Positions 10,023 to 57,453 of a DNA stretch of 64,000 bases are shown here, one piece after another (position 1 is the first letter of the stretch; every line of letters begins with the position of its first letter). The position numbers were made by a program, and so were the translations under genes. A model generated the notes under the pieces. It searched no databases. It had not been told where the DNA came from and was given only the letters and a program-made list of their open reading frames with translations. This DNA is from Pontibacillus marinus BH030004 = DSM 16465 (lineage in GTDB: Bacteria > Bacillota > Bacilli > Bacillales > BH030062), in assembly GCF_000425225.1 (NCBI RefSeq), contig NZ_AULJ01000008.1, positions 124,001 to 188,000 of the forward strand, given 5' to 3'.

Positions 10023-10052
10023 ACGTGAGAGTGTCTGCTATTCGACAAAAAC

Positions 10053-12552: not shown

Positions 12553-12565
12553 CCAGATTTTACTC

Positions 12566-12597
12566 TCGCTCCTCTTTTAAGGGGGGGGCGATTTTTT
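12566..12597 (+). terminator. Terminator of the symporter operon
   Basis: TCGCTCCTC pairs with the G-rich strand GGGGGGGCGA around a short loop, followed by seven T residues. Confidence 0.7.
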
Positions 12598-12620
12598 TAT
12601 GTGATTCATGTCGAAATTAG

Positions 12621-12647
12621 TAAAGATTTTCGAAATTATGACGATAA
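12621..12647 (+). promoter_or_regulatory. Sigma-D (flagellar/chemotaxis) promoter
   Basis: TAAA at 12621-12624 and GACGATAA at 12640-12647 are separated by exactly 15 bp. This matches the Bacillus sigma-D pattern TAAA-N15-GCCGATAT in six of eight -10 positions, and it lies before a chemoreceptor gene, a classic sigma-D target. Confidence 0.7.
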
Positions 12648-12682
12648 TAATTATAATATTCAGAAAAACTAGGGAGGAGGAA

Positions 12683-12742
12683 GTGAAGAATATTTGTTCC
12701 TTAAACAAATTGATTTGGATACACAGGGGGAAATCAAAATGA
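12683..12742 (+). CDS. Possible 19-residue leader peptide coupled to the chemoreceptor gene
   Basis: A GTG at 12683 directly follows a very strong GGGAGGAGG site and opens a frame for [19 protein letters not shown]. Its TGA overlaps the ATG of the chemoreceptor gene as ATGA. Peptide similarity is unknown; the arrangement suggests translational coupling, but it could be chance. Confidence 0.35.
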
Positions 12743-14526
12743 AATTATTTAAATCGATTCGTGCAAAAATGATGGTAGCCATGACCGTGCTTTTACTATT
12801 ACCTATATCGATTCTAGGATTCATTTTTTATAATAATACCAGTATTTTAGGTCAAGCCATCATCCCGAAAGAAGTATTAGAGGAGAATAGTGATAAGGTT
12901 AAGGAAGTCTTTCAAGAGCATGAAAAGATGCTTTCATCTATAGGAAAAAGTTCTGAGATGGACTATAAGAACTATGAGTTTTCCAATGAGGTAGAGAATA
13001 GTATTTCGAACATGCCAAGTGTGAATGACCCTCAGAAAACAGAGTTCTATGAGGATCATTTGAATAACCTTGCAAGCGAAAGTGACTACATTATTAATCT
13101 ATACTTAGCTACTGCTGAAAAAGGAGAATTCTACTTATCCAATATTCCGCCTGAAGAGGTCAACTTAAATAAGTTCGATCCTCGTCAGCGTGAATGGTAC
13201 ACGCAAGCTATGGAAGCTGATGGTAAAGTGATTTATACGGAACCTTATCGCGATACAGGTACTGGTAAATCAACGATCACCCTAGCCAAAACAGTAACGA
13301 AAAATGGTGAAGTAATTGGCGTCTTAGGGATGGACTTTAGCATGTATAAGCTTTCTGGGCTCATCCGTGATGGTGTTAAAACAAATACGTTAATTATTGC
13401 AGGAGTAGCATTACTAGTTGCATTAAGCTTTGTTTTCTTCTACATCACTCGTATTAGCAAAAACCTCAATAGGGTAAATGAAGGAATGGCTAATGTGGCG
13501 AATGGTGACCTATCAATGGAAACGCTCGAAGTTAAAAGTAATGATGAGATTGGTAGACTCGCAGGAAGCTATAATGCCATGGTCATCAGCCTAAAAGAGC
13601 TTGTTTCCAATGTGTTAGAAACATCAGAGCAAGTTGCTGCGTCTTCTGAACAGTTAAGTGCAAATGCTGCTGAAACATCTACTGCATCAGAACAAATTGC
13701 AGGTTCTATACAAAACGTTTCTAGTGGAGCTGAGGATCAAAGCAGTAAAGTGGAAGAGTCGTCAGAATTAGTTCGTACGATATATGATGACATTGGAAAG
13801 ATCCATCGAGTAGTAGACCAGGTTCATGAGTCTTCAATGGAAACAGCAAATCAAGCAAGTGACGGAAAAGAGAATATCCAGCAGGCTATTGAACAAATGA
13901 GCATTATTAGTGAGAATACAGGAAATACAGGAAAGGTCATTGCTTCCTTAAATGAGAAATCAAATGAGATTGGCTCGATTGTTTCCTTAATTACGGATAT
14001 TGCAGAACAGACAAATCTACTAGCCTTAAATGCAGCGATTGAAGCGGCTAGAGCAGGGGAGCACGGTAAAGGTTTCGCTGTAGTTGCGGATGAGGTAAGA
14101 AAGCTTGCCGAGCAATCGAATAATTCGGCTCAAGAAATTAGCGGATTAATTAAAGACATTCAGGTAAGTACCGAAGATGCAGTAACTTCCATGGGAGAAG
14201 GCGAACAAGCTGTAAAAGAAGGCTTGGATGTGGTGAATTACGCTGGTCAAACTTTTGAAAAGATACACCAGTCTATTACGGATATCGCGAATCAAATGAG
14301 TGAAGTGAGCAACTCAGTAGAAACGATCAACAGTGGGACTGAGAATCTAACAAATGCGATGGATACCATTACAAGCATTACCCAAGAAGCATCAGGAGCT
14401 ACTCAAGAAGTTGCGAGTGCTGCTGAGGAACAAAATGCTTCAATGGAAGAAGTTTCGGGGGCTACACAGCAGTTAGCTGAGCAGGCGCAGGAACTGCAGG
14501 GGATGGCGAGTAAGTTTAGAATGTAA
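12739..14526 (+). CDS. Methyl-accepting chemotaxis protein
   Basis: A 595-residue receptor. An N-terminal membrane span (about residues 10-30) leads to an extracellular dCACHE-like sensor with [20 protein letters not shown] and [12 protein letters not shown], then a second span near 212-235, a HAMP domain, and a long helical signalling domain. The hairpin tip that contacts CheA/CheW is present around [20 protein letters not shown]. The ATG at 12739 has AGGGGGA 8 bases upstream; an in-frame TTG at 12694 is less likely. The sigma-D promoter upstream fits. The ligand is unknown. Confidence 0.92.
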
Positions 14527-14565
14527 CAATTAAATGAGCTACTATCTCTAATCTCCTTTGATTAG

Positions 14566-14596
14566 AAAAACCTCTCCATAATCGGAGAGGTTTTTT
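14566..14596. terminator. Bidirectional terminator
   Basis: AAAAACCTCTCC and GGAGAGGTTTTTT form a strong hairpin with T runs on both strands, between the chemoreceptor gene and the convergent subtilisin gene. Confidence 0.9.
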
Positions 14597-14603
14597 ACTA
14601 TCT

Positions 14604-16157
14604 TTATTCAAATGCCGAGTACACTGTTGTTAGACCATGTCCGAATTTTTCATCGTGGCCTTCAACACCAATATCTTCAGCTGTTTGCTTTAGCATAACT
14701 TTAATGTCACTTGGTGAAGCACCTTCATGCTCATCATATAAAAGAGCTGCAATTGCTGCTACTTTTGGAGAAGCCATTGAAGTACCTACATACCAACTAT
14801 AGCTAGGTCGAGTATATTCATAATCAACCACAAGACCATCTTCGTTCGTAATGTAATTCAGAACAGGTACGGAGCTAAATGCAAATTCAGTTGCATAAAG
14901 CATGTTATTCATATACTCATCAGATTTACCTTCAGCCTCATACTGCAGCATTAGGTCATAGTTACCACCTGGAGCCGCTACATCTACATATCCATTTCCA
15001 TAAGTAGAATAAACCGCTAACTCATCTTGTGGACCCGTAGCTGATACTGTCACAACGTTTGGAATATCCGCTGGAGCATAAACGCTAGCACCTTGGAACT
15101 CGTATCCTAACTCACCATAATTATCATTAGCTAACTCTGTTACAGTCTTAGGACTCTTAGCATCAATTGCATCGTTACCGGCAGAAGAAACGATTAATGT
15201 ACCTTTGCTTTCTGCATATTTAGCCGCACGCATATATGCAACGTACTCTGCGATATCGCTACCTAGACGTTCTTTTTCACCTGTAACAGGATTGTTGTAA
15301 TAAACCTGACCTTTAGAATAAATACCGCCTAGACTCATGTTAATAACGTCTACACCATCATTTGCAGCTGCAACAATTGCACTCATAATCCAAGCACTAT
15401 ATGCGCCGCCTTCAGCACCAAACACACGGTATGATTGGAATCCAACATCAGGTGCAACACCTAGCATAGCACCGTTACCAGCGATACTTCCGGCAACGTG
15501 AGTACCGTGGCCATTACGGTCCTGAACATCGTTAATGTCGCCAGTTTCAGAAGTGTCTACACCGTAGATGCCGCCGGCTGGAACAAAGTTTTTAGAGCCT
15601 GGAAGTAGGTTCTTTTGAACATCTGGGTGGTTTAAGTCGATACCAGAGTCAATAATCCCTACTACAACATCGTGACTTCCGCTATGTTCAGCAAAAGTAG
15701 CGCCATCATTTGTTAGGCGTTGAATATCCCACTGGTAAAGGTCAAAGAGAGACGCATCCTCTAAAAGGGTTTCAGACGAAGTAGTAGTTTTACCCTTTCC
15801 TTTTCCGTTACCATTATTGTTTGTTTCATCTTGCTCTTCGGCCATTTCCATCTCTATTGATTTGCCATCTGGCAATTCATATTGTAAGGATGGGTTAGCC
15901 GCAACAATTGAACTATTGTTGATTGCGTTACTCGCGAAACCAACAGGGGCTTCTACTTGTACAAGACCAATTTCAGGAACTTCGTATATAATCGTTCCTC
16001 CTAGGTCCTTTATTGTCTTTTTAGCATTCCCAGGAATGCTACTGTCTTTAAAGACTACTGTGAACTTTGTTGTTTCTTCCTCTGCGTTACCCATAGTTGG
16101 AGAAGTGATTCCTAGGATAACCACTAAACTCATCAAAATAGCTAAAAATTTCTTCAT
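14604..16157 (-). CDS. Secreted subtilisin-like serine protease (S8 family)
   Basis: A 517-residue preproprotease. Residues 1-24 are a signal peptide (MKKFLAILMSLVVILGITSP), then an I9-type propeptide to about residue 105, a Gly/Lys/Asn linker, and the catalytic domain with Asp170 (GIIDSGID), His217 (NGHGTHVAG), oxyanion Asn328 (SSAGND) and Ser460 (GTSMASP). The whole triad is present, so activity is expected. The frame extends to 16214, but the ATG at 16157 has GGAGG about 8 bases upstream and begins the signal peptide. It is divergent from a surface-protein gene and may provide nutrients or process surface proteins. Confidence 0.92.
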   Translation of the reverse strand: MKKFLAILMSLVVILGITSPTMGNAEEETTKFTVVFKDSSIPGNAKKTIKDLGGTIIYEVPEIGLVQVEAPVGFASNAINNSSIVAANPSLQYELPDGKSIEMEMAEEQDETNNNGNGKGKGKTTTSSETLLEDASLFDLYQWDIQRLTNDGATFAEHSGSHDVVVGIIDSGIDLNHPDVQKNLLPGSKNFVPAGGIYGVDTSETGDINDVQDRNGHGTHVAGSIAGNGAMLGVAPDVGFQSYRVFGAEGGAYSAWIMSAIVAAANDGVDVINMSLGGIYSKGQVYYNNPVTGEKERLGSDIAEYVAYMRAAKYAESKGTLIVSSAGNDAIDAKSPKTVTELANDNYGELGYEFQGASVYAPADIPNVVTVSATGPQDELAVYSTYGNGYVDVAAPGGNYDLMLQYEAEGKSDEYMNNMLYATEFAFSSVPVLNYITNEDGLVVDYEYTRPSYSWYVGTSMASPKVAAIAALLYDEHEGASPSDIKVMLKQTAEDIGVEGHDEKFGHGLTTVYSAFE

Positions 16158-16428
16158 GTTCTTCCTCCCTGTGAATTTTTTTACTACACCTATTTTTATT
16201 TCGAGATAATTCAAAATTCCCCTCTATAAATTTTCAATTTTCAGATTAATAGTACTTTTATCACTGCTTTTAAATAGTAAATTATAACTATTTAGAGTTA
16301 GTCACTAAAAGTTAACATGGAATAATAACCCACCATTACTAGTAGATTACTATTTATCCCCTACAAAATCCCACGTAAAATCAAAATGTAACAAAAATAT
16401 TACAAAGAAGTGGGAGAGTTTCAACAAC

Positions 16429-17934
16429 ATGAATGTCAAAAGAATCATAATAGGAATACTAGTCTTCTTAACAGTTCTTCATACGGACTTACCTGAAGTG
16501 ACTGCTGAAAAGACGACTACCTTTCAAGATTTAGTTCGATTTGAAGAGGAGATCCAGTACTTACATAACTTAGAGGTAATCAATGGATTCTCTGAAACGA
16601 CCTTCAAACCACTAGCAGAGATTAAAAGAGTCGACGCAGTGCGTATGATCATTCGAGAGATGGAAGTGGATTTATCAGAAGTGCAAGATCCAAACTTCAC
16701 GGATGTTCCAAAAGGGTTCTCAGGTTATAAGGAGATCGCCAAAGCGAAAGAGCTACAAATTATAAATGGTGTAGGGAATGGAAAGTTTGCTCCAAATGCA
16801 CCTTTAACTCGCGCTCAAATGGCAAAAATTTTATCAGAAGCTTATGATCTACAAAGTCAAACTGAGGTTGCTTTTACCGATGTAAACGAAAAGCATTGGG
16901 CAAAAGCCTATATTTCTGCTTTAGCTAGTAATCGCATTACGATCGGTTATCCAGACGATACATTCCGCCCCAAAAAGAATATTACACGTCAGGAATTCTC
17001 AGCGTTCTTGGCACGTCACTTAAATGAAGCGTTTGTTCCACATGAGTACGGAAATAAGCTATCTAATATCATCAATAGCGGTAACTTTGCGAAATCAGGC
17101 GATTGGGTTTACTTTGGTGACGCTGGGATTTGGAAGGTTTCTGAGAATGAGCGATATGTGAATCGTGTAGCTTCCGATCAGGAGAATAATGTTGCTTTTT
17201 TAAATGTAATTGGTGATTGGATTTATTATTCAAATGCCCAAGACAACTTATCTATTTATAAGGTTAAGAAGGATGGTTCAGACCGTCAAAAGCTTGTTAA
17301 CGCACCTGCCATGTATCTGCATGTAGTTGATGATTGGATGTACTACACAAACCCTGAAAAAGAAGCAATTTATAAAGCGAAAACAGACGGATCACAGTTA
17401 GTCAAAATCACAGAAACAAGTTCACCGTACACATCGGCTGTACACCAAGGTTGGATCTATTATGTAGATTCAAAAAGTGGTGGCTTCTATCGCATCAAAA
17501 CGGATGGAACACAGAAGACGAAACTCACATCCGAAATGGTAACGTACTTTGCTGTGTACGAGGACAAAATGTACTATGTGAATGAGTTTGACCAAAATCA
17601 TCTCTATAAAATGAACTTAGACGGAAGCCAACAGGAAAAAGTATTAGATGAATCGATGATTGGTTTTAATATTTCAGACGAGCGTGTTTATTATATTAGC
17701 CGTGAGAATGGTAGCCTGAATACGTGCTCTCTTGATGGGACTGTTCATGAAGAATTAGACGCTAATGGTTATGGAGGTTCAGTCATGATTCATGGTGACT
17801 GGCTATACTATAGTATGTATAAAGAAGATGGAACATATCAGTGGTATAAGATAAGAAAGAACGGGGAGGATCGTCATCAGTTTCCTGTGACGATTACGTT
17901 TTCTGAAGTACAAAAAGAAGAACAGACTAAGTAG
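16429..17934 (+). CDS. S-layer-homology protein with DUF5050-like beta-propeller
   Basis: A 501-residue exported protein. Residues 1-26 are a signal peptide (LTVLHTDLPEVTAE end). Three SLH domains follow to about residue 195, seen as LHNLEVINGFSETTFKPLAE, KELQIINGVGNGKFAPNAPL and ITIGYPDDTFRPKKNITR; these bind pyruvylated wall polymers. The C-terminal part consists of repeated 40-45 residue units with DWIYYSN/DGSDRQKL motifs, matching DUF5050-type propeller repeats. The ligand of the propeller is unknown. It converges on the giant SLH protein gene, sharing a bidirectional terminator. Confidence 0.88.
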   Translation: MNVKRIIIGILVFLTVLHTDLPEVTAEKTTTFQDLVRFEEEIQYLHNLEVINGFSETTFKPLAEIKRVDAVRMIIREMEVDLSEVQDPNFTDVPKGFSGYKEIAKAKELQIINGVGNGKFAPNAPLTRAQMAKILSEAYDLQSQTEVAFTDVNEKHWAKAYISALASNRITIGYPDDTFRPKKNITRQEFSAFLARHLNEAFVPHEYGNKLSNIINSGNFAKSGDWVYFGDAGIWKVSENERYVNRVASDQENNVAFLNVIGDWIYYSNAQDNLSIYKVKKDGSDRQKLVNAPAMYLHVVDDWMYYTNPEKEAIYKAKTDGSQLVKITETSSPYTSAVHQGWIYYVDSKSGGFYRIKTDGTQKTKLTSEMVTYFAVYEDKMYYVNEFDQNHLYKMNLDGSQQEKVLDESMIGFNISDERVYYISRENGSLNTCSLDGTVHEELDANGYGGSVMIHGDWLYYSMYKEDGTYQWYKIRKNGEDRHQFPVTITFSEVQKEEQTK

Positions 17935-17946
17935 AATATGATATGT

Positions 17947-17979
17947 AAAAAGGACGTCCGAAGTTTGGACGTCCTTTTT
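17947..17979. terminator. Bidirectional terminator between two SLH protein genes
   Basis: A perfect 13-base stem, AAAAAGGACGTCC with GGACGTCCTTTTT, around a 7-base loop, has T runs in both directions and lies between convergent genes. Confidence 0.92.
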
Positions 17980-17983
17980 GCTA

Positions 17984-20900
17984 CTAATTATTAAAATAAA
18001 ACTTACTCATTAATCGTTTTAGAACGACTGCACTTTCTGCACGTGTTGTTGTGTTATTTGGTAAAAGATTATTTTGTGAAGTTCCTTGAATAATACCTGC
18101 TTGTATAACCGCAGAAACATACTCTAATGATGTTTTCTTCAGTTTATTCGCATCATGATAAGTAGTTAGTGTATCAATCTTGAATTCCATTTCACCATTT
18201 ACGAAAATTAAAGCTCTAGCTGTCATTTCCATCAATTCTTCACGAGTAAGAGCTTGATTAGGTTTAAACTGATCATTATTATAGCCGCCTAATAGATTGG
18301 CTTGTATAGCAGATTGTAATTGAGTGTAGTACCAATCATCTTTTGAAACATCTTCATAAGGTACTTTTGTATCCTTATTAGGTGTTAATCCCATTGCTCG
18401 TGTTAAAAGCACAGCATATTCGGCGCGAGTAACGTTCGCTTCAGGATCAAAGTTTCCGTTGCTTCTGCCCTCGATAATTAATTGAGAAGCTAATGATTCA
18501 ATTTCTTTTTTGGCCCAATGATCTTGAATATCTTTGAATGTTTTATCTTTCATCTGAAGAACAGCGTAGGTACTATTTCCGTTTCGGTTGAAGATTGCTA
18601 CGGTATTTCCATCTTCATCAATTTCAATACGCGCTGGAACCGTATAAATGGAATCTGTCTCTTCATTATAGGTAACAACAAGTGTTTGATCAGCATCTAC
18701 TTCACGGTCTAGTACAATGCTACGTTCTACATACTGTGTGCCAAAGGATTCAATTTTTGTTACAGTGTCGTCTTCAATGATATTCACTTCAAAATTCATT
18801 GGTCGTGATACTAGTTCAAGGTCCTCATCACCATCAATATGTCTACTGATAGACTCTTGAACATTATCTGATGATTCACGTATACTTACTTCAATCTTAG
18901 CATCCTCACTAATATCACTGAAGTCAGTCATTTCTAATGGAAGCTGATAGGACCCACTATTTGATTTAATATAAAGGTGTTTTTCCTCTCCTTCTTCTTC
19001 CTTGGCACTATCAAGGAAGGACTTAGAAATGGAGAAGTCTACATAATCAGAATCATTTTCGCTCTCATATTCATAAATTTCTATAGGCTGTGTTGTAGTA
19101 CGTTTGATAAAGATATCCTTGTCGAATACTTCAACTTCAATTTCAGCTGTTGTTTCTCCGTCTTCTCCTTCAAGAATGTGCTCGATGACTTCATCAATCT
19201 CTTCATCAGTAAGTTCAGTCTCTTGATTATCCTCTTCATCTTCTTCGTAATTATCATCAATAATGACAGGTGTACTGTTATAAGATGAGTCATCCTCAGT
19301 ATTGGATTCCTCTTGAGTTGGATCCTCAGTTGTATCATTAGTACTATCATTTGAGGTATCAGTATTACTATCCCCAGTAGAATCACCATCAGTAGATCCA
19401 GAAGTATCAGTTGATGTATCATCAGATGGCGAGCTGCTAGATCCATCAAACGTTTTTGTTAGTGAAAATGACTGACTAGATTCTGTACCATTTAATTTTG
19501 CTGTTACTGCAAAATTAAGTGTTTTACCCATCCAATCACCAGTGACATAGCTTGTCACATCGTATTGCGTTTCTGTCAATGCATTCCCAAGACTAGAGAT
19601 AGTTGTAGCTCCATCCTCTTGGAAGTATAGATTGTATCCATCTGCATAGGCATTAGCATCCCAAGTTAAGAAAAATTGTCCTTCAGCATTAGCTGTGAGT
19701 TTCAAATTGTTCGGTGACTGAACGTCAAAGGATTGTGTTACATCAAATGTTTGAGTAGATTCAGCACCGTTAACGTTTGATGTTACAGCAAATTGCATTG
19801 TTTTGTCTTGCCATTCGCCAGTTGCTTTATCTGTTACATCTAATTGTGTACCTGAGATAAGTTGATCGAAACTAGAGATCGATGTGGATCCCTCTTCTTT
19901 GTAATAGATCGTGTATCCCTCAGTGTAAGGAACGCCATCCCAAGATAAAATGTGTTGCCCTTGTTCATTTAATGCATATTGCAAGTTCTTTGGTGGTACT
20001 ACATCAAAGGTTTTTGTAATGTTATAGGTTTGATCCGATTCTAAACCATTGATCGTAGATACTACTGCAAGTTGCAATGTCTTACCTTGCCATTCGCCTA
20101 ATGCTTGTTCTGTTACATTGGCTTGTGTCTCGGTGAAGAGATTATTAATGCTTGATACAGATTCGGTATCCTTATAATAGACTCTATATCCTTCCATGTA
20201 AGGTACAGCATCCCAAGTTAATAAGTGCTCACCTTTAGTGTTCTCTGCATATTGTTGATTTTCAGGAGCTTTTATCACAAACTCGTAAACCTTTTGAGCT
20301 GGATTAGATTGTATATCACAAATGTTGGTTGTAACACGGAATGTGACGGTATCTCCAAACCAAGGTTTAAATTGGCTTGGTGTGACTTGAAGTTGTGATT
20401 CTGTTAAAGAATTTTTAAGTGTATCGAAATACGACATACCAGATGTTTTATACTCTACCGTATAATCATCAGCAGTCATCGTATCCCAATCTAAGATGAA
20501 TTCATCGCTAACGTTAAAATTCGCTGTGAAGTTGGTTGGTTGAATGGCCCCAACTTTACTTGCAGAGTCAAAGCGATAGATTACCGATTTATCTTCAGGT
20601 TGAGCAAAAACTCTGCCAGTGGAGTCTGTTGTTACAAGATTAACTGTACATGGGAAGTCAGCCACCTTTGTGGTGGTGCCTCGCTCATACACGGCTGTTT
20701 TTGTGAATACATAGTTAGCATTCACATAGATAATTGGGTCAGTGTATAAGTTAGTAGTAGTTAATGCACTTGTATCAAACTGATTCATAGCATAAAAGAT
20801 GTCTGAACCATCTAAAATCACTTCTCGGTTTGGAGTAGAGAAATCCTGGCTACTTTCCTTTATTGCCCCAAAAGTTGATGCATCTATTGAGAAAAGTTGC

Positions 20901-22458: not shown

Positions 22459-22545
22459 TGGTGGTAGCCCGGCGGTCATGGTCTTTATTAGACAGTAGAT
22501 CCGTGGCTTTGCGTCATCGCCTTTCGACGATTTTGCCTTTGACAA
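22459..22545 (-). ncRNA. Cyclic di-GMP-I riboswitch (GEMM), leftward
   Basis: The reverse strand carries the GEMM-I core in order: AAAGGCAAAA, a GAAA tetraloop stem (TCGTCGAAAGGCGATGA), the strongly conserved ACGCAAAGCCACGG, and the 3' part CCGCCGGGCTACC with the tetraloop receptor. A terminator hairpin follows and then the giant SLH protein gene. Family knowledge gives cyclic di-GMP as ligand. Whether binding turns expression on or off cannot be decided by eye. Confidence 0.92.
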
Positions 22546-22830
22546 CTTTTTGGTATGAAGTTGATAGAAAATTACTATATTTATAATAAGTTCTTTTCAC
22601 TAGAAGTCAAATTTTGTAGGTATATCGGTTATGATATATTTATTTGTAGAATGGACTTATCGTATTGTTTTTATTGATTAAATTGGAAAATGTGGTGTAT
22701 AATCCATGAATTCCTAACCACAAAAATTGTCGATCACTGTCGAAATGTAGGGGAAATGTACTAAATTAAATTAATTTTGTGGTACATGCATTTTAATGTT
22801 TATGTAAATGCCATTCTAAGGAGCGGTTAT

Positions 22831-23079: not shown

Positions 23080-23232
23080 AAGGAGAAGTTAGAATCCTAA
23101 TAAAGATACCTCGCTACCATCTATAAAGCAGGGGTCTTGTTATATTTGATTTTTTGTGAATCCGCTTTCGAAATAATTAGAATTTATGATATGCTTAATA
23201 AGTATCAAGACTAAAAACCTACAAAATTAATG

Positions 23233-23312
23233 AAAAGGGCAAACTTGTCGAAAGGCAAGGACGCAAAGCCACGGGTCTAAAGTATCGTTTTACTAAGACA
23301 GCCGGTTGCCGT
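23233..23312 (+). ncRNA. Cyclic di-GMP-I riboswitch (GEMM), rightward
   Basis: The forward strand shows GGGCAAAC, a GAAA-capped stem (CTTGTCGAAAGGCAAGG), ACGCAAAGCCACGGGTCTAA and the 3' part GACAGCCGGTTGCC, all in GEMM-I order and spacing. A long terminator hairpin follows at 23329 and then the leucine-rich-repeat protein gene. Confidence 0.93.
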
Positions 23313-23328
23313 ATGAGTAAATACGAAG

Positions 23329-33939: not shown

Positions 33940-34139
33940 GCGCTCATATTTTAGGGGGTGCGCTCTTAAAAGGGGCAGATCGCTCATAATTCAAGGGGTG
34001 CGCTCATAAAAGAGGCAGGTCGCTCATATTCTAGGGACTGCGCTCATTAAAGCAGTAGGCCGCTCTTATTCCAGGGATTGAAATCATAAATGAAGTGACT
34101 CGCTCATATCTCCAAGATCGCGCGCATAAATGAAAGATA
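33940..34139. repeat. Array D: ten-unit tandem repeat with 20-bp period
   Basis: Ten consecutive 20-bp units start at 33940, 33960 and so on, most beginning with GCGCTCAT, TCGCTCAT or a close variant. Odd and even units differ (TCGCTCATATTCTAGGGACT versus GCGCTCATAAAAGAGGCAGG), giving a 40-bp higher-order period. Units decay toward the right. No indel disturbs the phase. It lies between the mtlA regulatory region and a small membrane-protein gene and has no coding sense, since the period is not a multiple of three. Confidence 0.85.
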
Positions 34140-36416: not shown

Positions 36417-36470
36417 GATGAAAAATCTTGTTGATTATTGTAAAATAATGTTACTAGAATGAGAGGAGTG

Positions 36471-37469
36471 ATGATACTGAATAATATTAAAAGGGAAATC
36501 CCTTTAGACATCCCACAAAAAGAAGGAGTTTTAAGAAGGATCACGCCACATAATCCAAAACGGAAACGAGTCGAAGAGAAGTTGAAAAGAAGGTGGTCAG
36601 GTCACAAAGGAGAACTTGCGCTTGATTATCATCTGCGATTTTTACCTTTTAAATCCTATCAAGTCATTCGTGGTGTTCGATTACGAGCTTTCGGAAATGC
36701 TTTTCAAATAGACACCCCTATCCTCAATCCTCATGCCATATTTATTACTGAAGCCAAAAATCATAAGGGAACCATCACATACAATGAAGAAAAGAACCAT
36801 TTTGAACAAACGATAAATGGCGTCACGAAACACATGGATGATCCATTACTTCAAGTAACCGAACATAAGCAACAATTAGAAGAATGGCTTCGCTATCGAG
36901 GCATTTATGGTTACCCCGTCGTTCCTCTGGTAGCCTTCACTAATCCCTCAACCGTAGTAATCCCACCTCAAAACCATAAACACAACTGGTCACTTATGAA
37001 TGCAGTCCACATTGTCGACAAAATTAAAGAAATTGAAAGACAGTATAAAGATCGCCCCACCTTTAATATTGATAAAATTAGAGACGCTCTCCTAGCTGAA
37101 AACACCCCACTCGAGCAAGATATCCTCCAATCCTTTTCAATCAAATCCTCTGATATTATCCGTGGAGTCATGTGTCCCAAATGTGAAAGCTATGCTATGG
37201 AGTGGGTGCGTTTGAGGTGGCAGTGTCCTAAATGTAGTTATCGCTCAAACAGTGCTCATCTCTTAGCACTAGCGGATTATTTTTTGTTAGGGAAGGACTC
37301 TATTACGAATCGGGAGTTTAGGGATTTTGCTTTGGTTTCTGATAGGAATACAGCGCTAAGAATGCTAAAGAGTAGCGGTTTAGAATATGAAGGTCTTTCA
37401 AAAAAGAGAGTTTATAAGAAGCCAGATGATTTACCAGCTTTTGTGAAGCATGCGATTAATCAAAAGTAG
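36471..37469 (+). CDS. NERD-domain protein with C-terminal zinc ribbon
   Basis: A 332-residue protein. The NERD nuclease-related domain is seen from about residue 45 (GHKGELALDYHLRFLPFKSY, IDTPILNPHAIFITEAKNHK). Toward the end, MCPKCESYAMEW and WQCPKCSY form a CxxC-CxxC zinc ribbon, followed by a short helical tail. NERD proteins are thought to act in DNA processing. ATG at 36471 is chosen because the protein then opens like its relatives; GAGAGGAG lies close upstream. It is followed directly by tandem array A. Confidence 0.85.
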   Translation: MILNNIKREIPLDIPQKEGVLRRITPHNPKRKRVEEKLKRRWSGHKGELALDYHLRFLPFKSYQVIRGVRLRAFGNAFQIDTPILNPHAIFITEAKNHKGTITYNEEKNHFEQTINGVTKHMDDPLLQVTEHKQQLEEWLRYRGIYGYPVVPLVAFTNPSTVVIPPQNHKHNWSLMNAVHIVDKIKEIERQYKDRPTFNIDKIRDALLAENTPLEQDILQSFSIKSSDIIRGVMCPKCESYAMEWVRLRWQCPKCSYRSNSAHLLALADYFLLGKDSITNREFRDFALVSDRNTALRMLKSSGLEYEGLSKKRVYKKPDDLPAFVKHAINQK

Positions 37470-37517: not shown

Positions 37518-37979
37518 ACCCGAGCGAAAGCAAGACGCACCCGAGCGGAAGCAGCTCGCACCCGAGCGAAAGCGGCCTGCACCCGAGCGAAAGCAACTCG
37601 CACCCGAGCGAAAGTAGCTCGAACCCGAGCGAAAGCAGCTCGCACCCGAGCGAAAACAGCTCGCACCCGAGCGAAAACAGCCCGCACCCGAGCGAAAGCA
37701 GCATGCACCCGAGCGAAAGCAGCGCGTACCCGAGCGAAAGCAGCTCGCACCCGAGCGAAAGCAGCTCGCACCCGAGCGAAAGCAGGACTCACCCGAGCGA
37801 AAACAGCTCGCACCCGAGCGAAAGCAGCCTGTACCCGAGCGAAAGCAGCGCGTACCCGAGCGAAAGCAGAGCGTACCCGAGCGAAAGCAGCTCGTACCCG
37901 AGCGAAAACAGCTCGCACCCGAGCAAAAGCAGCGCGTACCCGAGCGAAAGCAGCTCGTACCCGAGCGAAAACAGCGCTG
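37518..37979. repeat. Array A: 22-unit, 21-bp tandem repeat (ACCCGAGCGAAAGCAG core)
   Basis: Twenty-two units start every 21 bp from 37518 to 37959 with no phase slip. Bases 1-16 are nearly constant (ACCCGAGCGAAAGCAG); the last five vary (CTCGC, CGCGT, CCTGT and others). In units ending CTCGC, CGAGC and GCTCG could pair as a small hairpin. All six frames are open over most of the array, but none has a ribosome binding site. It starts 48 bp after the NERD gene stop and ends before a hairpin terminator. Confidence 0.95.
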
Positions 37980-38058: not shown

Positions 38059-38092
38059 AGCCCCTCGTTACTCAGCCAACGAGGGGCTCTTT
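38059..38092 (+). terminator. Terminator downstream of array A
   Basis: AGCCCCTCGTT pairs perfectly with AACGAGGGGCT around an 8-base loop, followed by CTTTAT. It would end transcripts entering from the NERD gene or the array. The remaining sequence to 38306 shows no gene or clear motif. Confidence 0.75.
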
Positions 38093-38306: not shown

Positions 38307-39482
38307 TTGGGGAGAACAGTTGTTACTGGAATGGGGATTCAGGCGCCACAAATTCAATCGACCAACGATTTTGAACATGTGCTTGAGAAAGGTGTCTGCA
38401 CACACTCTATCCTTCATGATCATGGGCCGAATCATTCTAGTATTGTCGCCGGCCAAATCACCCAAGAACCCCTCAACGAGAGAGCATACAAACGGTATCC
38501 ACGCTCAAGTCGGTTAGCTATGGCTGCAGCAGACGAAGCACTACGGCAAGCTGACATCAAAAACATCAATCCATCCAGAATTGCAGTCATTATGGGGACT
38601 TCCCTTGGGAGTCTGCTTGAAATTGAACAAAATTGCGATGCCGCAAAGGATTTCCGTAAGTTTCCGTGTCACGGTGTTGTACTCGCGGATTCGCATACGC
38701 TTTCCTCATCTGTCGCAATGTACACAGGAGCAAAAGGTCACGTCCACACGATTACAACAGGATGTGCATCTAGCTCAGACGCTATTTTGATGGGAAAGCT
38801 TTTGCTAGATTCGAACCAGGCGGATGTCTGTATCGTTGGTGGAGCGGATGCATCACTAGGGCAGTGGAGTACATATGGATTCGCCAAACTCAGATCCATC
38901 GCTCAAAACACAGATCCTCGCCACACCGGCGTTCCTTTTTCAAATGAGCATCATGGATTTGTCATGTCAGAAGGCGCTGGCATTATCACCTTGGAGCGAG
39001 AAGACCACGCTAACCAAAGAGGAGCAATCATTCATGGCATCGTGGAAAATGTGTACTCCAACAATGAAGCACTACCAATGCTTAAAGCTGATGAGACTGG
39101 AGAATCCATGCTCGAAGCTTTAAATGGTGTACTCCAAAATCATCAGCCCAGCTATGTAAACAGCCAAGCACTCGGTCTACAAACAAACGACAATGTAGAA
39201 AAAATAGTGCATCATAAGCTTTTTGGCAATTCGATCCCAATTACATCCATCAAAGGCATGACCGGGCATATTTTTGGATCGATGGGCGTCATCCAAGTCA
39301 TCTCATCATTGATTTCTTTTAACAAAAACTTTATACCACCAACGATTAATACGAACGGCAAAGGTTACGAAGATCTTCCAATTGTTTATGAACCAAAGTA
39401 TCAGCCGGTCACCAGTGTTGCCATCACAACGCACGGTAATGGTGGCAATAATACGTGTTTATTAATGAAAAAATATGAGTGA
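38307..39482 (+). CDS. Beta-ketoacyl synthase family protein with altered active site
   Basis: A 391-residue thiolase-fold condensing enzyme resembling FabF. The nucleophile is Cys153 (ITTGCASSSDA), the Lys-Gly segment SIKGMTGHIFGSMG keeps Lys316 and His321, and SEGAGIITLE is typical. The first catalytic His, normally in VNAHGTST, is missing: the sequence reads VNSQALGLQTND, with Gln287 in its place. Decarboxylating condensation may thus be lost or changed. TTG start with AGGGGGTG 7 bases upstream. It lies 13 bp before a GGDEF-EAL gene and is probably co-transcribed with it; no acyl carrier protein is nearby. Confidence 0.85.
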   Translation: MGRTVVTGMGIQAPQIQSTNDFEHVLEKGVCTHSILHDHGPNHSSIVAGQITQEPLNERAYKRYPRSSRLAMAAADEALRQADIKNINPSRIAVIMGTSLGSLLEIEQNCDAAKDFRKFPCHGVVLADSHTLSSSVAMYTGAKGHVHTITTGCASSSDAILMGKLLLDSNQADVCIVGGADASLGQWSTYGFAKLRSIAQNTDPRHTGVPFSNEHHGFVMSEGAGIITLEREDHANQRGAIIHGIVENVYSNNEALPMLKADETGESMLEALNGVLQNHQPSYVNSQALGLQTNDNVEKIVHHKLFGNSIPITSIKGMTGHIFGSMGVIQVISSLISFNKNFIPPTINTNGKGYEDLPIVYEPKYQPVTSVAITTHGNGGNNTCLLMKKYE

Positions 39483-39495
39483 AGGAGGCACGTAC

Positions 39496-41901
39496 ATGCT
39501 ATTTATTTTCATGACGTTATTTGCAATTATTCCATTAGTTATCGGAATCACGATTTATTTTATGCTTAAGAAAACGAAGCTTGCCTCAGCACTCCTTTTA
39601 TTCTTAGGTCTCGCGAGTGTTTGGCAGTTTGATGTTGCCATCTTGTATGCGCACGAATTTTTCTCCTATGAAGTGATTGATACAGTTTTCCGTGCGTTAC
39701 GTTTCGGATCCATCATGCTGACGCCGACTCTGTTTTATGTAGCCTACCTTGTTGTAAAAGAACATCTTCCTCAAATGAAGGGGACGAAGTGGAAGCGTTT
39801 TATGGACATCAAAGTGGTCTGGGCATTTTACGCATACAGTCTTTTTGCGTATGCCGTGGGCTGGAGTCATCGTGGTATTAGTGGTCTAAAGCTAATGGAA
39901 TCTGACTCATTTAACAGTTTTTATTTCCCGCAGTATGGACCGTTATCATGGGTGTTCACTACAAACGTGATTTTATTTATATTTTGTACCGTCGTAACAT
40001 GCTGGTTAAGTTTGAAAATTAAAAAGCAAGGCATCGGAACGTTTCTTACTTATTTTCTTTTCTCCACATCTGTTGGCTACGTGATAGGAATTTTGAATAT
40101 GATGCCAGAAGCGAGACTGTTCCCAAGTGCCATCGCTGTTATGGTTTTTGCCCTCACTATCCTCGTTTTAGTAACCAAGATAGTTAACGAGAAAAGTGAG
40201 GAGCTAGAGGAAAAAGAGGCTTTCTTAAGGTCGATCATTGATATTAATCCGAACTACATATATGCAACGGATAAAAACGGCACGCTCACACTTGCGAACA
40301 AAGCATTTGCTGAGTTGAGTGGCACGACAACAGATGAAGTCATCGGAAAACGAAAAGAGGATACTTTCGACACATTAAAGACACCACTTACAGATGACGA
40401 TGATTGCTTCTTTTTACAAGCAACAAAAGATACAGAGGAAGTCATCACAGACGTTCACGGGAATAAGAAATGGATTCATACCGACGAGATTCCTTTCCAA
40501 ACTACACAAGAAAATCTCTTATTGGGGGTTTCCACGGACATCACGAAAATTAAGCAAAAAGAAGTGGAGATCATCTGGCAGGCGTTTCATGATGAGTTAA
40601 CGGGTCTTCCGAATCGCCGATATTTCAATGAGATTTTACAAAAAGAGATTGAAAAAGCTGAAGGCGTACATCAAGAGATCGCCGTTATGTTCTTAGACTT
40701 GGATCGATTTAAATACATTAACGATACGCTTAGTCATGAGGTTGGGGATGCCCTGCTGAAGCAGGTTTCCGTGCGTCTGCAGCAAAGCAGCCGGAACAAG
40801 AAAGGGAAGCGAGCTAAGGTATGCCGCATAGGTGGAGATGAATTCACCTTTATTCTACCGAACAGTAATGGTCCTGAGGCTGTGCTATTTGCAAAAGAAA
40901 TCATCGCATCTTTTGAAGAAGTTTTTACAGTGTACGGGCACAACCTTTATATAACGCCAAGCATTGGAATAAGCTTGTACCCATTTGATGGCGTAACAGC
41001 CAACACCCTTATCAAAAACGCTGATTCTGCCATGTACTATGTAAAAGATAAAGGAAAGAACGGGTTCCAGATCTTCAACTCTGATATGAACCATGACTTT
41101 TATCGCAAGATGGTGCTGGAAAAAGAGTTGCGTCAGGCGATTGAGAGAGATGAGCTTTCTCTTCATTACCAACCACAACTCAACCTTGAGTCAGGACGTG
41201 TTGTTGGAATGGAGGCACTTGTGAGATGGGATAGCCAGGAGCTTGGACGAGTATCACCAGGTGAGTTTATCCCGCTAGCTGAAGAGACAGGATTGATCCT
41301 ACCTGTAGGCGAATGGATTTTACGTAGAGCTTGCCGACAAAATAAAGAATGGATTGACCAGGGGTATGAACCACTGCGTGTAGCGGTGAATATCTCCCAA
41401 ATGCAATTCATGAATCCTAAATTCTCAGATCTAGTATTGCAGGTTTTGGAGGAAACTGGGTTGCCTGCAGAGTACTTAGAACTTGAAATCACCGAGAACA
41501 TCGCGATGACAGACGAACAACGAGTGATTTCAGTTCTAAGTAAACTCACGAAAAACGGTGTGAAAGTCGCGATTGATGACTTTGGTAAAGGGTACTCATC
41601 CCTTGGCTACCTCAACAAATACTCGGTCGATTACCTGAAGATCGACAAAACATTCATTCAAGATCTACCATACCATCCGGATAACATTGCAATCGTTAAG
41701 AGCATTATCTCGGTAGCGGAGCATCTTGAAATTGAGTTGATTGCTGAAGGAATTGAAAATGAAAAAGAGCTTCAGTTTGTGAGGGAACTGGGATGTCAGT
41801 ATGCGCAAGGCTATTATATCGGCCATCCAACTCCTGCGAACAATTTTGAAGAGAATGTATTAGGGAAGATTGGGCAGTTTCGGATTAATGGAATTACTTG
41901 A
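39496..41901 (+). CDS. Membrane PAS-GGDEF-EAL cyclic-di-GMP enzyme
   Basis: An 801-residue signalling protein. About seven membrane spans cover residues 1-235 (7TM sensor type). A PAS domain follows (IIDINPNYIYATDKNGTLTL), then a GGDEF domain with an intact GGDEF at about 446-450 and an EAL domain with EAL at about 573-575, plus IAIDDFGKGYSSLGYL-like metal-site sequence. Both synthesis and hydrolysis of cyclic di-GMP are possible; the net direction is unknown. ATG at 39496 has AAGGAGG 7 bases upstream and is preferred to the ATG at 39475. It follows the ketosynthase-like gene. Confidence 0.93.
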   Translation: MLFIFMTLFAIIPLVIGITIYFMLKKTKLASALLLFLGLASVWQFDVAILYAHEFFSYEVIDTVFRALRFGSIMLTPTLFYVAYLVVKEHLPQMKGTKWKRFMDIKVVWAFYAYSLFAYAVGWSHRGISGLKLMESDSFNSFYFPQYGPLSWVFTTNVILFIFCTVVTCWLSLKIKKQGIGTFLTYFLFSTSVGYVIGILNMMPEARLFPSAIAVMVFALTILVLVTKIVNEKSEELEEKEAFLRSIIDINPNYIYATDKNGTLTLANKAFAELSGTTTDEVIGKRKEDTFDTLKTPLTDDDDCFFLQATKDTEEVITDVHGNKKWIHTDEIPFQTTQENLLLGVSTDITKIKQKEVEIIWQAFHDELTGLPNRRYFNEILQKEIEKAEGVHQEIAVMFLDLDRFKYINDTLSHEVGDALLKQVSVRLQQSSRNKKGKRAKVCRIGGDEFTFILPNSNGPEAVLFAKEIIASFEEVFTVYGHNLYITPSIGISLYPFDGVTANTLIKNADSAMYYVKDKGKNGFQIFNSDMNHDFYRKMVLEKELRQAIERDELSLHYQPQLNLESGRVVGMEALVRWDSQELGRVSPGEFIPLAEETGLILPVGEWILRRACRQNKEWIDQGYEPLRVAVNISQMQFMNPKFSDLVLQVLEETGLPAEYLELEITENIAMTDEQRVISVLSKLTKNGVKVAIDDFGKGYSSLGYLNKYSVDYLKIDKTFIQDLPYHPDNIAIVKSIISVAEHLEIELIAEGIENEKELQFVRELGCQYAQGYYIGHPTPANNFEENVLGKIGQFRINGIT

Positions 41902-41907: not shown

Positions 41908-41936
41908 AGGACCTTAAGCTTGGCTTAGGGTCCTTT
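41908..41936 (+). terminator. Terminator of the GGDEF-EAL operon
   Basis: AGGACCTTAAGC pairs with GCTTAGGGTCCT (one G-U pair) around TTG, followed by a short T run. It comes before array C. Confidence 0.65.
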
Positions 41937-41961
41937 CTATGAATAAGGAAAAGCAGTGCCA

Positions 41962-42108
41962 ACCCGATGGAAAGCAGTGCCAACTCGATGGAAAGGAGTG
42001 CTGACCCGATGGAAACCAGTGCCGACCCGACGAAAAGCAGTGCCAACCCGACGGAAAGCAGCACCGACTCGACGAAACCCAATCCCCACCCAAGAAAAAG
42101 CGTGATCT
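41962..42108. repeat. Array C: 7-unit, 21-bp tandem repeat
   Basis: Seven units start at 41962, 41983, 42004, 42025, 42046, 42067 and 42088, the last two degenerate. The typical unit begins ACCCGATGGAAAGCAGTG or ACCCGACGGAAAGCAG. It is the same family and strand as arrays A and B. A partial unit, GGAAAAGCAGTGCCA, precedes it. It fills the space between two convergent transcription units, and its last unit runs into the bidirectional terminator. Confidence 0.85.
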
Positions 42109-55205: not shown

Positions 55206-55374
55206 TTACATGATCCTTTCTTCAACTAATCTTCTTCTCATTGTGATATATAAGGGGAGAATTAGCAAAGGTGAGAGTAGAAATTGGAAGTTATGTAGAG
55301 ATAAAAAGGGGAATGGTTCTATAGAATAGAATTACGAAACTAGAACGGATTTTAACATGTCTGGAGGATGGATC

Positions 55375-56721
55375 ATGGCGCAAAACGCTGAAGAACGCAT
55401 TCATTATACGAAGAGCTATTTACGCAAACAGACGATTCATACGATTTTGGAACAATTCGATGGAACCATTATGGGATTAAGCAAGACGGATCGAAAAGCG
55501 AAATATAACAAAATGAAGCAGGATCCGTTTTGCTTTTTCCGAGGCAGTGCGTATCTATTTTACTACGACGTCATGAATATGCCGTTTACGTACCACACAT
55601 CTGAGGATAAGCCCACGTGGATTATGGGTGACCTTCATTTTGATAACTTTAGTGCGTTTCAAAATGAGAGCGGTGATATCGTTTTTGACGTTGATGATTT
55701 TGACGAAGGATATTTAGGATCCTACTTATATGATGTACTGCGTATGGTTGTAAGTATTCGATTATTTGCTGAGCAACAAGGGTTTGAAAAAGAGGCGCAA
55801 GAAGAGTTCGTCGAGAAGTTTTGTAAGGCTTATCGCAAACAATTGAAAAAGTTCAATGAAGATGAAGAAGATCCAGTTACGACCCAATTCACAGTCGACA
55901 ATACGAAAAGTGCTATTAAGAAGGCGTTGAAAAAGTTAGAAAAGCGTAAAGCAACACATGAATTAGATAAACAAACGGTTGTGGATGACGAAGGGAATCG
56001 TGCATTTGATCGTGAACACACAAAACTACAGTCCGTTTCGAAAAATGAGTATAGCGAACTTCAAAAGATTTGGAATCAGTACCTTGAAAGTATTGCAGAG
56101 GAAAGCTTTCAAGAGGATGAACACTATGAAATTAAAGATATCGTGAAGAAAAAAGGTGCAGGTATCGGCTCTACTGGCTTGAAGCGCTTCTATATTTTAA
56201 TTGAGGGTCAGCATGATAATGAGCATCATGACGACATCATTTTAGAAGCAAAAGAAGCACGAACGCCAATTCCGGCTTACTTCTTCCCATATGACGAGCA
56301 ATTTTGGAAGTCTCACAAGCATCAGGGTGAGCGCGTAATTACGACCCAACAAGCGATGCACCATATGGCCGATCCTTATCTAGGTTACTTTACGATGAAA
56401 GGTCGCGACTACTACGTGCGTGAACGTTCTCCTTATGAAAAAGACTTGAAGGAAAAGCATTTAGAAGACTTCAAATCCGTAAAGCAAACCGTAAAAACCA
56501 TGGGCAAAATCGCTGCCAAAATTCACGCCCGTGCCGATGTGGATCTGGAGCATGGTATTCTGAGTTATCACAGTGAAGAAGAGATTCTAAATGTGATCGG
56601 TGATGATAAAGAAGGTTTCATTAAGGAGATGCAAGTTTGGTCTGGATTTTATAAAGAACGAGTGGAAGAAGACCATGCTCTGTTTAATGAATGGTTGAAA
56701 GAGTATTTTTATAGTAAGTAA
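55375..56721 (+). CDS. DUF2252 family protein
   Basis: A 448-residue cytoplasmic protein. The kinase-like-fold segments IMGDLHFDNFSAFQNESGD and VFDVDDFDEGYLGSYLYDV match DUF2252, a group related to aminoglycoside phosphotransferase-like proteins; biochemical role is unsettled. ATG at 55375 has GGAGG 7 bases upstream and is preferred to the ATG at 55357. A terminator and then array B follow. Confidence 0.85.
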   Translation: MAQNAEERIHYTKSYLRKQTIHTILEQFDGTIMGLSKTDRKAKYNKMKQDPFCFFRGSAYLFYYDVMNMPFTYHTSEDKPTWIMGDLHFDNFSAFQNESGDIVFDVDDFDEGYLGSYLYDVLRMVVSIRLFAEQQGFEKEAQEEFVEKFCKAYRKQLKKFNEDEEDPVTTQFTVDNTKSAIKKALKKLEKRKATHELDKQTVVDDEGNRAFDREHTKLQSVSKNEYSELQKIWNQYLESIAEESFQEDEHYEIKDIVKKKGAGIGSTGLKRFYILIEGQHDNEHHDDIILEAKEARTPIPAYFFPYDEQFWKSHKHQGERVITTQQAMHHMADPYLGYFTMKGRDYYVRERSPYEKDLKEKHLEDFKSVKQTVKTMGKIAAKIHARADVDLEHGILSYHSEEEILNVIGDDKEGFIKEMQVWSGFYKERVEEDHALFNEWLKEYFYSK

Positions 56722-56727: not shown

Positions 56728-56756
56728 AACCACCTTGGCGTTCAAGGTGGTTTTTT
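56728..56756 (+). terminator. Terminator of the DUF2252 gene
   Basis: AACCACCTTG pairs perfectly with CAAGGTGGTT around GCGTT, followed by a T run, six bases past the stop codon. Array B starts after it. Confidence 0.9.
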
Positions 56757-56782
56757 ACGTGAGAAAAGCGAAAGCAGCTGTG

Positions 56783-57453
56783 ACCCAGGGAAAGCAGCAT
56801 CGACCCGAGGGAAAGCAGCACCGACCCGAGGGAAAACAGCATCAACCCGAGGGAAAGCAGCACCAACCCGAGGGAAAGCAGCATCGACCCGAGGGAAAGC
56901 AGCACCAACCCGAGGGAAAGCAGCACCGACCCGAGGGAAAACAGCATCAACCCGAGGGAAAGCAGCACCAACCCGAGGGAAAGCAGCATCGACCCGAGGG
57001 AAAGCAGCACCAACCCGAGGGAAAGCAGCACCGACCCGAGGGAAAACAGCATCAACCCGAGGGAAAAGAGCACCAACCCGAGGGAAAGCAGCTCCAACCC
57101 GAGGGAAAGCAGTGCGTACCCGAGGGAAAGCAGCTCGAACCCGAGCAAAAGCAGTGCGAACCCGAGCGAAAGCAGCTCGAACCCGAGCGAAAGCAGCTCG
57201 AACCCGAGGGAAAGCAGCTCGAACCCGAGCGAAAGCAGCGTCGACCCGAGCAAAAGCAGCTCGTACCCGAGCGAAAGCAGCTCGAACCCGAGCGAAAGCA
57301 GCTCGAACCCGAGGGAAAGCAGCTCGAACCCGAGGGAAAGCAGCTCGAACCCGAGCGAAAGCAGTGCGAACCCGAGCGAAAGCAGCGTCGACCCGAGCGA
57401 AAACAGCACCGACCCAAAAGAAAAAGCCCCCAACCCGAGAAACATCCCGAATC
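56783..57453. repeat. Array B: about 32-unit, 21-bp tandem repeat
   Basis: One 20-bp unit at 56783 is followed by units every 21 bp from 56803 to 57433 without a phase slip; the last two are degenerate. The left half has the core ACCCGAGGGAAAGCAG with ends CACCG, CATCG or CACCA; the right half has ACCCGAGCGAAAGCAG as in array A. The 105-bp block 56824-56928 is repeated exactly at 56929-57033. The array fills the gap between the DUF2252 terminator and the end of the convergent SNF2 gene. Confidence 0.95.

What the first reader, a model, noticed from the sequence alone, without database searches (positions are those of the whole stretch)
37518..37979. Family of strictly phased 21-bp intergenic tandem arrays
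Array A has 22 units with a constant ACCCGAGCGAAAGCAG core and a variable 5-base end, and not one base of slippage. Arrays B (56783) and C (41962) carry the same core on the same strand. Twenty-one bp is two helical turns, so each core would face the same side of the DNA, as in plasmid iterons and partition sites. The arrays sit after genes, next to terminators. A protein-binding or chromosome-organising role is inferred. I know of no described system with this unit.
Basis: partly seen in the sequence, partly recalled or inferred. Interest (0 to 1): 0.8.

Follow-up and report, generated by a model that had tools for sequence, protein, structure and literature searches.

The report
Replication-aligned 21-bp repeat arrays in Pontibacillus
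A bacterium of the salt-loving genus Pontibacillus carries a dozen blocks of an exactly 21-letter repeated DNA word after its genes, all pointing the way the chromosome is copied; part of the word barely varies while the rest drifts, which suggests that something in the cell reads it, but what does so is unknown.

Summary
Array A (37518-37979) is 22 exact 21-bp units; B and C are relatives. The genome belongs to Pontibacillus. I found 12 such arrays ("type 1") in it. All 12 follow the 3' end of a gene (by eye 10 after its terminator, 2 between stop codon and terminator), on that gene's coding strand and on the leading strand of replication. 272 of 279 unit spacings are 21. In 9 long arrays (189 units) positions 1-7 and 10-12 deviate in 0-3% of units, positions 13-21 in 10-38%: a short core is held, the rest drifts. 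The sister genome G002 has type-1 units at 8 of 11 mapped sites, fewer at each. Only these 2 of 397 genomes of the order matched a two-unit pattern. At such sites other Pontibacillus mostly have no array, some a different one. A second 21-bp family (type 2) sits inside palindromic repeats and lies mostly on the lagging strand. Best reading: polar, fast-evolving, satellite-like arrays of a protein-recognised site; binding is inferred, not shown. A non-functional minisatellite with strand asymmetry is nearly as likely. Translation, RNA structure and mobile-element origin are disfavoured for type 1.

The parts
37518..37979 (+). Array A: 22 type-1 units of 21 bp, between the stop codon of a NERD-domain gene and a terminator-like hairpin
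   Evidence: gene identity
41948..42103 (+). Array C: 7-8 degenerate type-1 units between a GGDEF-EAL gene and a convergent ORF (106 aa, weak zinc-ribbon matches below Pfam cut-offs)
   Evidence: genes
56762..57448 (+). Array B: about 33 type-1 units between a DUF2252 gene and a convergent SNF2 helicase gene
   Evidence: genes; orthologous array in G002
36459..37469 (+). gene upstream of array A, NERD domain (PF08378)
39475..41901 (+). gene upstream of array C, PAS-GGDEF-EAL
55357..56721 (+). gene upstream of array B, DUF2252 (PF10009)
38059..38088 (+). intrinsic-terminator-like hairpin after array A
56729..56756 (+). terminator-like hairpin and T run before array B (read by eye; not listed by the strict scan)
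41908..41940 (+). terminator-like hairpin before array C (read by eye, weak T run; not listed)

Best explanation
Type-1 arrays are polar, satellite-like arrays of a sequence-specific recognition site. The site is the short core ACCCGAG[C/G][G/A]AAA, repeated every 21 bp (two helical turns); the other 9 bp act as a spacer of fixed length but looser sequence. Shown: type-1 units lie at 8 orthologous sites in the two array-bearing Pontibacillus genomes, on the same strand after the same genes, so they were there before the split; unit number differs greatly between the two; in the long arrays core positions are held while spacer positions vary; polarity agrees with replication. Inferred: that the arrays started as short seeds (G002 could also have lost units); that units change in number by slippage or unequal recombination; that the core is held because a protein reads it (a DNA-binding protein, or an enzyme at the replication fork that drives amplification); and that polarity reflects a replication-coupled action or selection. 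The reader protein is not known.
For: Family in many places of one genome, in whole units. 272 of 279 spacings are 21 (five of 20, one of 22, one of 23; 18 array pieces in two species; the chain finder allows 18-24 and penalises steps other than 21, so it leans towards 21). Core versus spacer: in 9 long arrays, 189 units cut in one fixed phase, deviation from the array consensus is 0-3% at positions 1-7 and 10-12, 7% and 12% at 8 and 9, 10-38% at 13-21 (chi-square 446, 20 df; units share ancestry, so the p value is far too small). Polarity: 12 of 12 arrays in G000 and 5 of 5 in G002 are on the G-rich strand; on the complete chromosome G002 the upstream orthologs of 11 sites are all on the leading strand by map position (dnaA at base 1 recognised by eye, skew change between 1.9 and 2.1 Mb). 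In 7 convergent gene pairs, where a gene end is available on either strand, the array follows the leading-strand gene in 7 of 7. Shared sites: 5 with arrays in both species and 3 with about 2-3 units in G002 (by eye) where G000 has 23, 25 and at least 17. Indels: 7 gap openings per 46 mismatches in flanks (515 aligned bases) against 7 off-phase steps among 279 spacings, with about 2 deviations per unit.
Against: Only 2 of 8 Pontibacillus genomes and 2 of 397 genomes of the order match the two-unit pattern, so the arrays are dispensable. Unit number is labile. In G002 arrays that I did not include in the core test the core itself is changed (L144: ACCTGACGGAAAGTCG; L145: AGCCGAGAGAAAGCAG and ACGCGAGAAAAAGCAG). 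The core test used 9 arrays chosen for length, in the phase with most ACCCGA; units outside that phase were left out (33 of 50 in L061, 10 of at least 17 in L076). All type-1 upstream genes are themselves leading-strand genes, so transcription and replication polarity are separated only by the 7 convergent cases. No binding protein was searched for.
Confidence: 0.4

Rival explanations
1. Non-functional minisatellites. GC-rich repeats after terminators, where DNA is little constrained, expand and shrink by replication slippage. Strand polarity comes from replication asymmetry (purine-rich leading strand, as in many Firmicutes), not from function; the uniform core reflects recent common origin and uneven mutation.
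For: Unit-number lability between sister species; absence from most congener sites; different arrays at some of the same sites; location in 3' intergenic DNA, none of 12 in a divergent pair; changed cores in G002. Counted by eye, the leading-strand reading is purine-rich for type 1 (12 of 21 in A, 14 of 21 in B), type 2 (13 of 21), the G007 atpC unit (34 of 42) and the G001 pta unit (15 of 20); it is not for the G001 atpC unit (9 of 21) (units; leading strand in G001 and G007 taken from the gene, not measured). Purine asymmetry in Firmicutes: PMC4070872, search listing and start of abstract only.
Against: Position-specific constraint inside arrays and few off-phase steps are not expected from neutral slippage; within-array identity (0.782) is only little above between-array identity (0.715), unlike locally homogenised satellites.
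Confidence: 0.36
2. Type-1 arrays are cargo or remnants of the palindromic (MITE-like or cassette-like) element whose ends read TGAAGACTTG...GAGATAA, as type-2 arrays are.
For: Type-2 arrays share ACCCGAG[C/G]GA with type 1 and lie inside this element. At the gntR site G000 has element ends with 10 type-1 units inside, and G002 has a plain element at the same place.
Against: By eye, 11 of 12 type-1 arrays show no element ends in the 140 bases before and 120 bases after (one of them, L071, has an internal gap of N). Complementarity of 5' and 3' flanks equals that of swapped pairs (mean -10.2 against -10.0, 16 pieces). Orientation differs: type 1 all leading; type 2 lagging in 9 of 10 arrays of G002 and 8 of 11 of G000, one of these with weak skew.
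Confidence: 0.12
3. The arrays act at the RNA level, as back-up terminators or structured 3' transcripts, possibly against antisense read-through from the convergent gene.
For: Position next to terminators and at 7 convergent gene ends. On the minus strand 8 stretches of array A are picked up as terminator-like; the B stretch with 11 pairs at 57185 lies in array B.
Against: The stretch with array B gives no excess (3 terminator-like sites, 3.3 in shuffles). Fold z-scores of 8 stretches (6 of type 1, 2 of type 2, both strands) range from -2.4 to +0.65 without a consistent strand. The small hairpin of array A depends on spacer bases that vary between arrays. 10 of 12 arrays lie beyond a terminator already (by eye).
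Confidence: 0.08
4. One frame is translated into a repetitive protein with a 7-residue repeat.
For: 21 is a multiple of 3 and several long frames cover array A.
Against: None of the six frames is free of stops in all 18 array pieces: frame +1 holds 5 stops in L144 and 4 in L145, frame +2 holds 9 in L061, frame +3 holds 5 in L061, and the three minus frames hold 9 in L072, 6 in L061 and 1 in A. Orthologous sites with about 2-3 units leave no room for such a frame.
Confidence: 0.02

Closest known systems
STAR elements of staphylococci (PMC3532100, passages read)
   Same: GC-rich intergenic direct repeats with a constant motif and spacers that differ between loci, 32-39 loci per S. aureus genome; repeat number changes; locations differ between species; function and spreading mechanism called unknown there.
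   Different: STAR motif is 14 bp with spacers of about 40 bp and 1-7 copies at the loci described; here the unit is 21 bp with 3-50 copies, spacers vary inside one array, and polarity follows replication. The word orientation does not occur in the main text held of that paper.
Plasmid iterons and partition sites with direct repeats (recalled)
   Same: Direct repeats with a unit near 20-22 bp, same helical face.
   Different: Those lie at one replicon locus beside rep or par genes; here 12 chromosomal places; the 11 mapped ones are 0.33 Mb or more from the origin.
KOPS/SRS and other polar, leading-strand chromosome motifs (recalled)
   Same: Leading-strand polarity.
   Different: Those are dispersed single octamers across a clade; here 3 of the 100 core places listed (159 in all) are isolated and the family was found in two species only.
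Bacterial minisatellites / VNTR loci such as MIRU (recalled)
   Same: Intergenic tandem arrays with variable unit number.
   Different: Strict orientation with replication and a split of held core and drifting spacer.

Membership tests
STAR elements | 14-bp motif T(G/A/T)TGTTG(G/T)GGCCC(C/A) | tested here: not met
   unit consensus ACCCGAGCGAAAGCAG + 5 variable bases compared by eye on both strands with the motif quoted
STAR elements | intergenic direct repeats at many loci, variable number | tested here: met
Plasmid iterons / centromere-like repeats | repeats bound by a Rep or ParB/ParR-type protein encoded next to them | tested here: inconclusive
   neighbour genes differ between the 12 arrays (names partly by recall); binding not testable
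Palindromic (MITE-like) element of Pontibacillus | element ends TGAAGACTTG..GAGATAA on both sides | tested here: not met
   by eye 11 of 12 type-1 arrays lack them; flank complementarity equals control; met for L074 and for type-2 arrays
SpoIIIE/FtsK orienting sequences | dispersed single oligomers skewed to the leading strand across the clade | tested here: not met
   97 of 100 listed core places are in arrays; no two-unit match in 6 of the 8 genus genomes; single cores were not counted in congeners
Coding repeat | one frame open in all arrays and conserved in the sister species | tested here: not met
Structured RNA family | match to an Rfam model or stable conserved fold | tested here: not met
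   (no match at the arrays at gathering threshold)

The most novel reading that the evidence does not exclude
The arrays are distributed, polar docking sites for an unknown replication-coupled or nucleoid protein of Pontibacillus: each is a ruler of near-identical sites on one face of the helix at the downstream end of leading-strand transcription units, often where a head-on gene ends, and the site turns over so fast that different species carry different versions at the same kind of place.
Probability: 0.2. Interest if true: 0.8.

Novelty: new variant of a known kind. Interest (0 to 1): 0.5.

Why it matters
If the core is bound, this is a replication-aligned array system that evolves like a satellite but keeps its site and its phase, in a bacterium: a model for how repeat arrays and their reader protein change together. 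If not, it shows that strand-specific growth of repeats alone can orient and phase arrays this strictly. Either way the arrays are candidate markers for typing strains of these species.

Tried and rejected
Rejected: translation, RNA structure and Rfam family, terminator array (for A in favour, for B not), origin of type 1 from the palindromic element (the same flank test says nothing for type 2, own -13.2 against swapped -15.2, because those elements share their ends), phage or plasmid origin (no match of array A in phages or plasmids at E 1e-3, with BLAST's low-complexity filter on, and no two-unit pattern in viral contigs). A three-unit pattern gave nothing in genome contigs, where the own and very near genomes may be left out. 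GAGCGA pairs on one strand: none at 20 bp and one at 21 bp in 80 named loci, mostly Bacillales, against 8 intergenic GAGCG[A/G] pairs at 20, 21 or 40-42 bp in the samples of four Pontibacillus genomes, 2 of these 8 on the leading strand; so strict leading-strand polarity does not extend to these weaker arrays. Literature: the searches listed no paper on this unit; as a string CCCGAGCGAAAGCAG is in no paper of the library. A relative of the cassette recombinase on a Sporosarcina plasmid showed no cassette array by its annotation.

Limits of the census: one search did not return array C, so weak arrays elsewhere may be missed; two-unit matches in L150 and the weak hit in L152 were not classed. 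Several G000 arrays (L066, L068, L071, L075, L077) contain runs of N, so their lengths are lower bounds. Gene calls are longest-ORF calls: a 215-aa minus-strand ORF call at L071 that overlaps the array and gap, and a 105-aa minus-strand ORF call before L143 (the crh place), were set aside as spurious. A single type-2 unit at G002 3795 kb was left out of the type-2 count. Of 20 skew samples of G002 one (3.5 Mb) has the other sign, and two (0.3 and 3.9 Mb) have more coding length on the other strand. Terminators outside the window were read by eye.

Full report
What is there. Array A occupies 37518-37979 and consists of 22 units of exactly 21 bp. The 16-mer ACCCGAGCGAAAGCAG with up to two mismatches occurs 52 times in the window, all on the + strand, against 0.04 expected in shuffles. 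B (about 56762-57448, 33 units in my chain, one step of 20) and C (about 41948-42103, 7-8 degenerate units) belong to the same family.

Genome and relatives. The window is part of a 4.28-Mb draft genome (G000). Two of its congeners are named through 100% identity over more than 4.3 kb: G006 is Pontibacillus chungwhensis BH030062 and G003 is P. litoralis JSM 072002, so the genus is Pontibacillus; the species of G000 was not named. A two-unit pattern with up to three mismatches matched 2 of 8 genomes of the genus, own included (G000 and G002), and with up to two mismatches 2 of 397 genomes of the order. G002 is a single 3.98-Mb contig; two proteins of the window are 95% and 97% identical there.

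Two kinds of array. A pattern and a BLAST survey and stretches around the hits gave 12 type-1 arrays in G000 (A, B, C, and those in L061, L062, L063, L065, L071, L072, L073, L074, L076) and 5 in G002 (L142-L146). The listing shows 100 of 159 places, and one search did not return C, so weak arrays may be missing. Type 2 (unit ACCCGAGCGATTCCGTCGCCT and variants) lies inside a longer palindromic element whose ends contain TGAAGACTTG...GAGATAA and its complement. That end motif, with up to two mismatches, has 195 sites in G000, 175 in G002, 230 in G007, 180 in G001, 7 each in G004 and G006 and none in G003 and G005.

Position. All 12 type-1 arrays in G000 follow the 3' end of a gene on the same strand; 7 are in convergent and 5 in co-directional gene pairs, none in a divergent pair (two minus-strand ORF calls were set aside, see Tried and rejected). 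By eye, in 10 of 12 an intrinsic terminator lies between gene and array; in A and L063 the array lies between stop codon and terminator. Upstream genes include atpC, pta, efp, coaA, whiA-crh and a thiolase (names by recall from the sequences).

Polarity. The sign of GC skew around each array gives the leading strand; for G002 it is checked against the map, with dnaA at base 1 (recognised by eye) and a skew change between 1.9 and 2.1 Mb. Type 1: 12 of 12 in G000 and 5 of 5 in G002 on the leading strand (the five are orthologs of G000 arrays, so 12 independent cases). About three quarters of coding length is on that strand in the G002 samples, so following any gene end would give 12 of 12 with probability about 0.03; in the 7 convergent pairs the choice of the leading-strand gene in 7 of 7 has probability 1/128. 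Type 2 as written lies on the lagging strand in 9 of 10 arrays of G002 and 8 of 11 of G000. Weaker 20-21-bp arrays with GAGCG[A/G] in the samples are on the leading strand in only 2 of 8 cases. Ten of 11 type-1 sites mapped on G002 lie 0.33-0.93 Mb from the origin on arms of about 2 Mb, one at 1.43 Mb; gene order in G000 was assumed collinear, which sites that share a contig support.

Core and spacer. In 9 long arrays read in one fixed phase (189 units) the deviation from each array's own consensus is 0-3% at positions 1-7 and 10-12, 7% at 8, 12% at 9, 24% at 13, about 10% at 14-16 and 17-38% at 17-21. I chose these arrays for length and the phase by ACCCGA; units outside that phase were dropped, and the G002 arrays L144 and L145, whose cores are changed, were not in the test. 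Over 18 array pieces 272 of 279 steps are 21 (the chain finder penalises other steps). Flanks of orthologous arrays show 7 gap openings per 46 mismatches; the arrays show far fewer phase changes per substitution. Units share descent, so these contrasts are strong but not formal tests. Type-2 units do not show the same split (61 units of 4 arrays).

History. Five sites carry arrays in both species with different unit numbers: B 33 and 15, atpC 50 and 25, L065 17 and 14, whiA-crh 13 and 4, efp at least 10 and 3. At coaA, SDR and thiolase G002 has only about 2-3 units (by eye) where G000 has 23, 25 and at least 17. So at all 8 shared sites G000 has more units; whether G000 gained or G002 lost them is not decided. 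At pta G002 has a type-2 array on the other strand, at gntR a plain palindromic element; site C in G002 aligned only up to the terminator. In the other congeners 46 stretches at eight sites were examined (51 with G002): 3 of 46 hold a 20-21-bp based array at the site, namely pta in G001 (GGAGCGAGA...), atpC in G007 (GGAGCGGATAA... and GTGACGGATAA...) and atpC in G001 (another sequence). Arrays found more than 1 kb away in the same stretches (for example G006 and G004 near SDR, G007 near whiA) were not counted. At the site of B, three of six other congeners (G004, G005, G006) hold arrays around GTGCCAGACACC or GTGTCAGACACC (by eye); on the P. chungwhensis record, which is G006, the repeat finder gives 37 bp x 4.2. 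In G001, G003 and G007 the next gene is another one and no array was seen.

Mechanism. I favour a protein-read site: a short held core, a fixed 21-bp step, a freer spacer, one polarity. It explains the split of core and spacer better than neutral slippage does. The polarity could be due to a replication-coupled reader or to strand-asymmetric growth; the lability between sister species, the changed cores in G002 and the absence from most congeners show that the arrays are not essential and behave like satellites. I put the two readings at 0.40 and 0.36.

Known kinds. The nearest described kind that I found is the STAR element of staphylococci (PMC3532100, passages read): intergenic GC-rich direct repeats with constant motif and variable spacers, whose function and spread are called unknown there. 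Motif, spacing and copy number differ, so membership fails while the resemblance stands. The passages that I saw of a MITE review and a stem-loop family survey (PMC10969869, PMC2267715), of a paper on triplex repeats (PMC4666352) and of the Pontibacillus genome paper (PMC4641356) name no such family.

Limits. No expression, binding or population data were available. Gene calls and several terminators are crude or by eye. G000 is a draft in which some arrays contain gaps.

Noticed in passing
L417 (G002:C1:330001-349900), sites from 1348 to 19680; L414 (G000:C17:52000-64000), sites from 2583 to 9005: Integron-like layout: 14 and 9 minus-strand copies (up to 3 mismatches; one plus-strand match in each) of a palindromic site (TTATCTCGAATTCAAGTCTTCA, mostly followed by GGGCGC), mostly with one or a few small ORFs between; L417:7109-7951 encodes a XerD/XerA-like tyrosine recombinase (NF040815 220.4 against cut-off 220) that fails the integron-integrase model (103 against 265). 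The same core forms the ends of the palindromic elements that carry type-2 arrays.
   Followed up: partly
window 33941-34077: A degenerate array of 20-bp units (40-bp period in the repeat finder) with ATGAGCG cores on the minus strand; similar 20-21-bp arrays with GGAGCGA or ATGAGCGA occur in the G001 samples.
   Followed up: partly
G005 genome; L193 9298-9454 (P. chungwhensis): 178 sites GTGYCAGACACC in G005 (100 listed), many as inverted pairs some 28-45 bp apart, some in 37-bp tandem arrays between genes.
   Followed up: partly
flanks of type-1 arrays: The 30 bases before arrays are poor in C (14%) and rich in G (33%), the 40 bases after are rich in C (38%) and poor in G (12%) (16 pieces); cause unknown.
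   Followed up: no
window 22460-22547 (-) and 23228-23313 (+): Two c-di-GMP-I riboswitches on opposite strands about 700 bp apart.
   Followed up: no
window 3907-3973 (-): Bacillaceae-1 RNA match.
   Followed up: no
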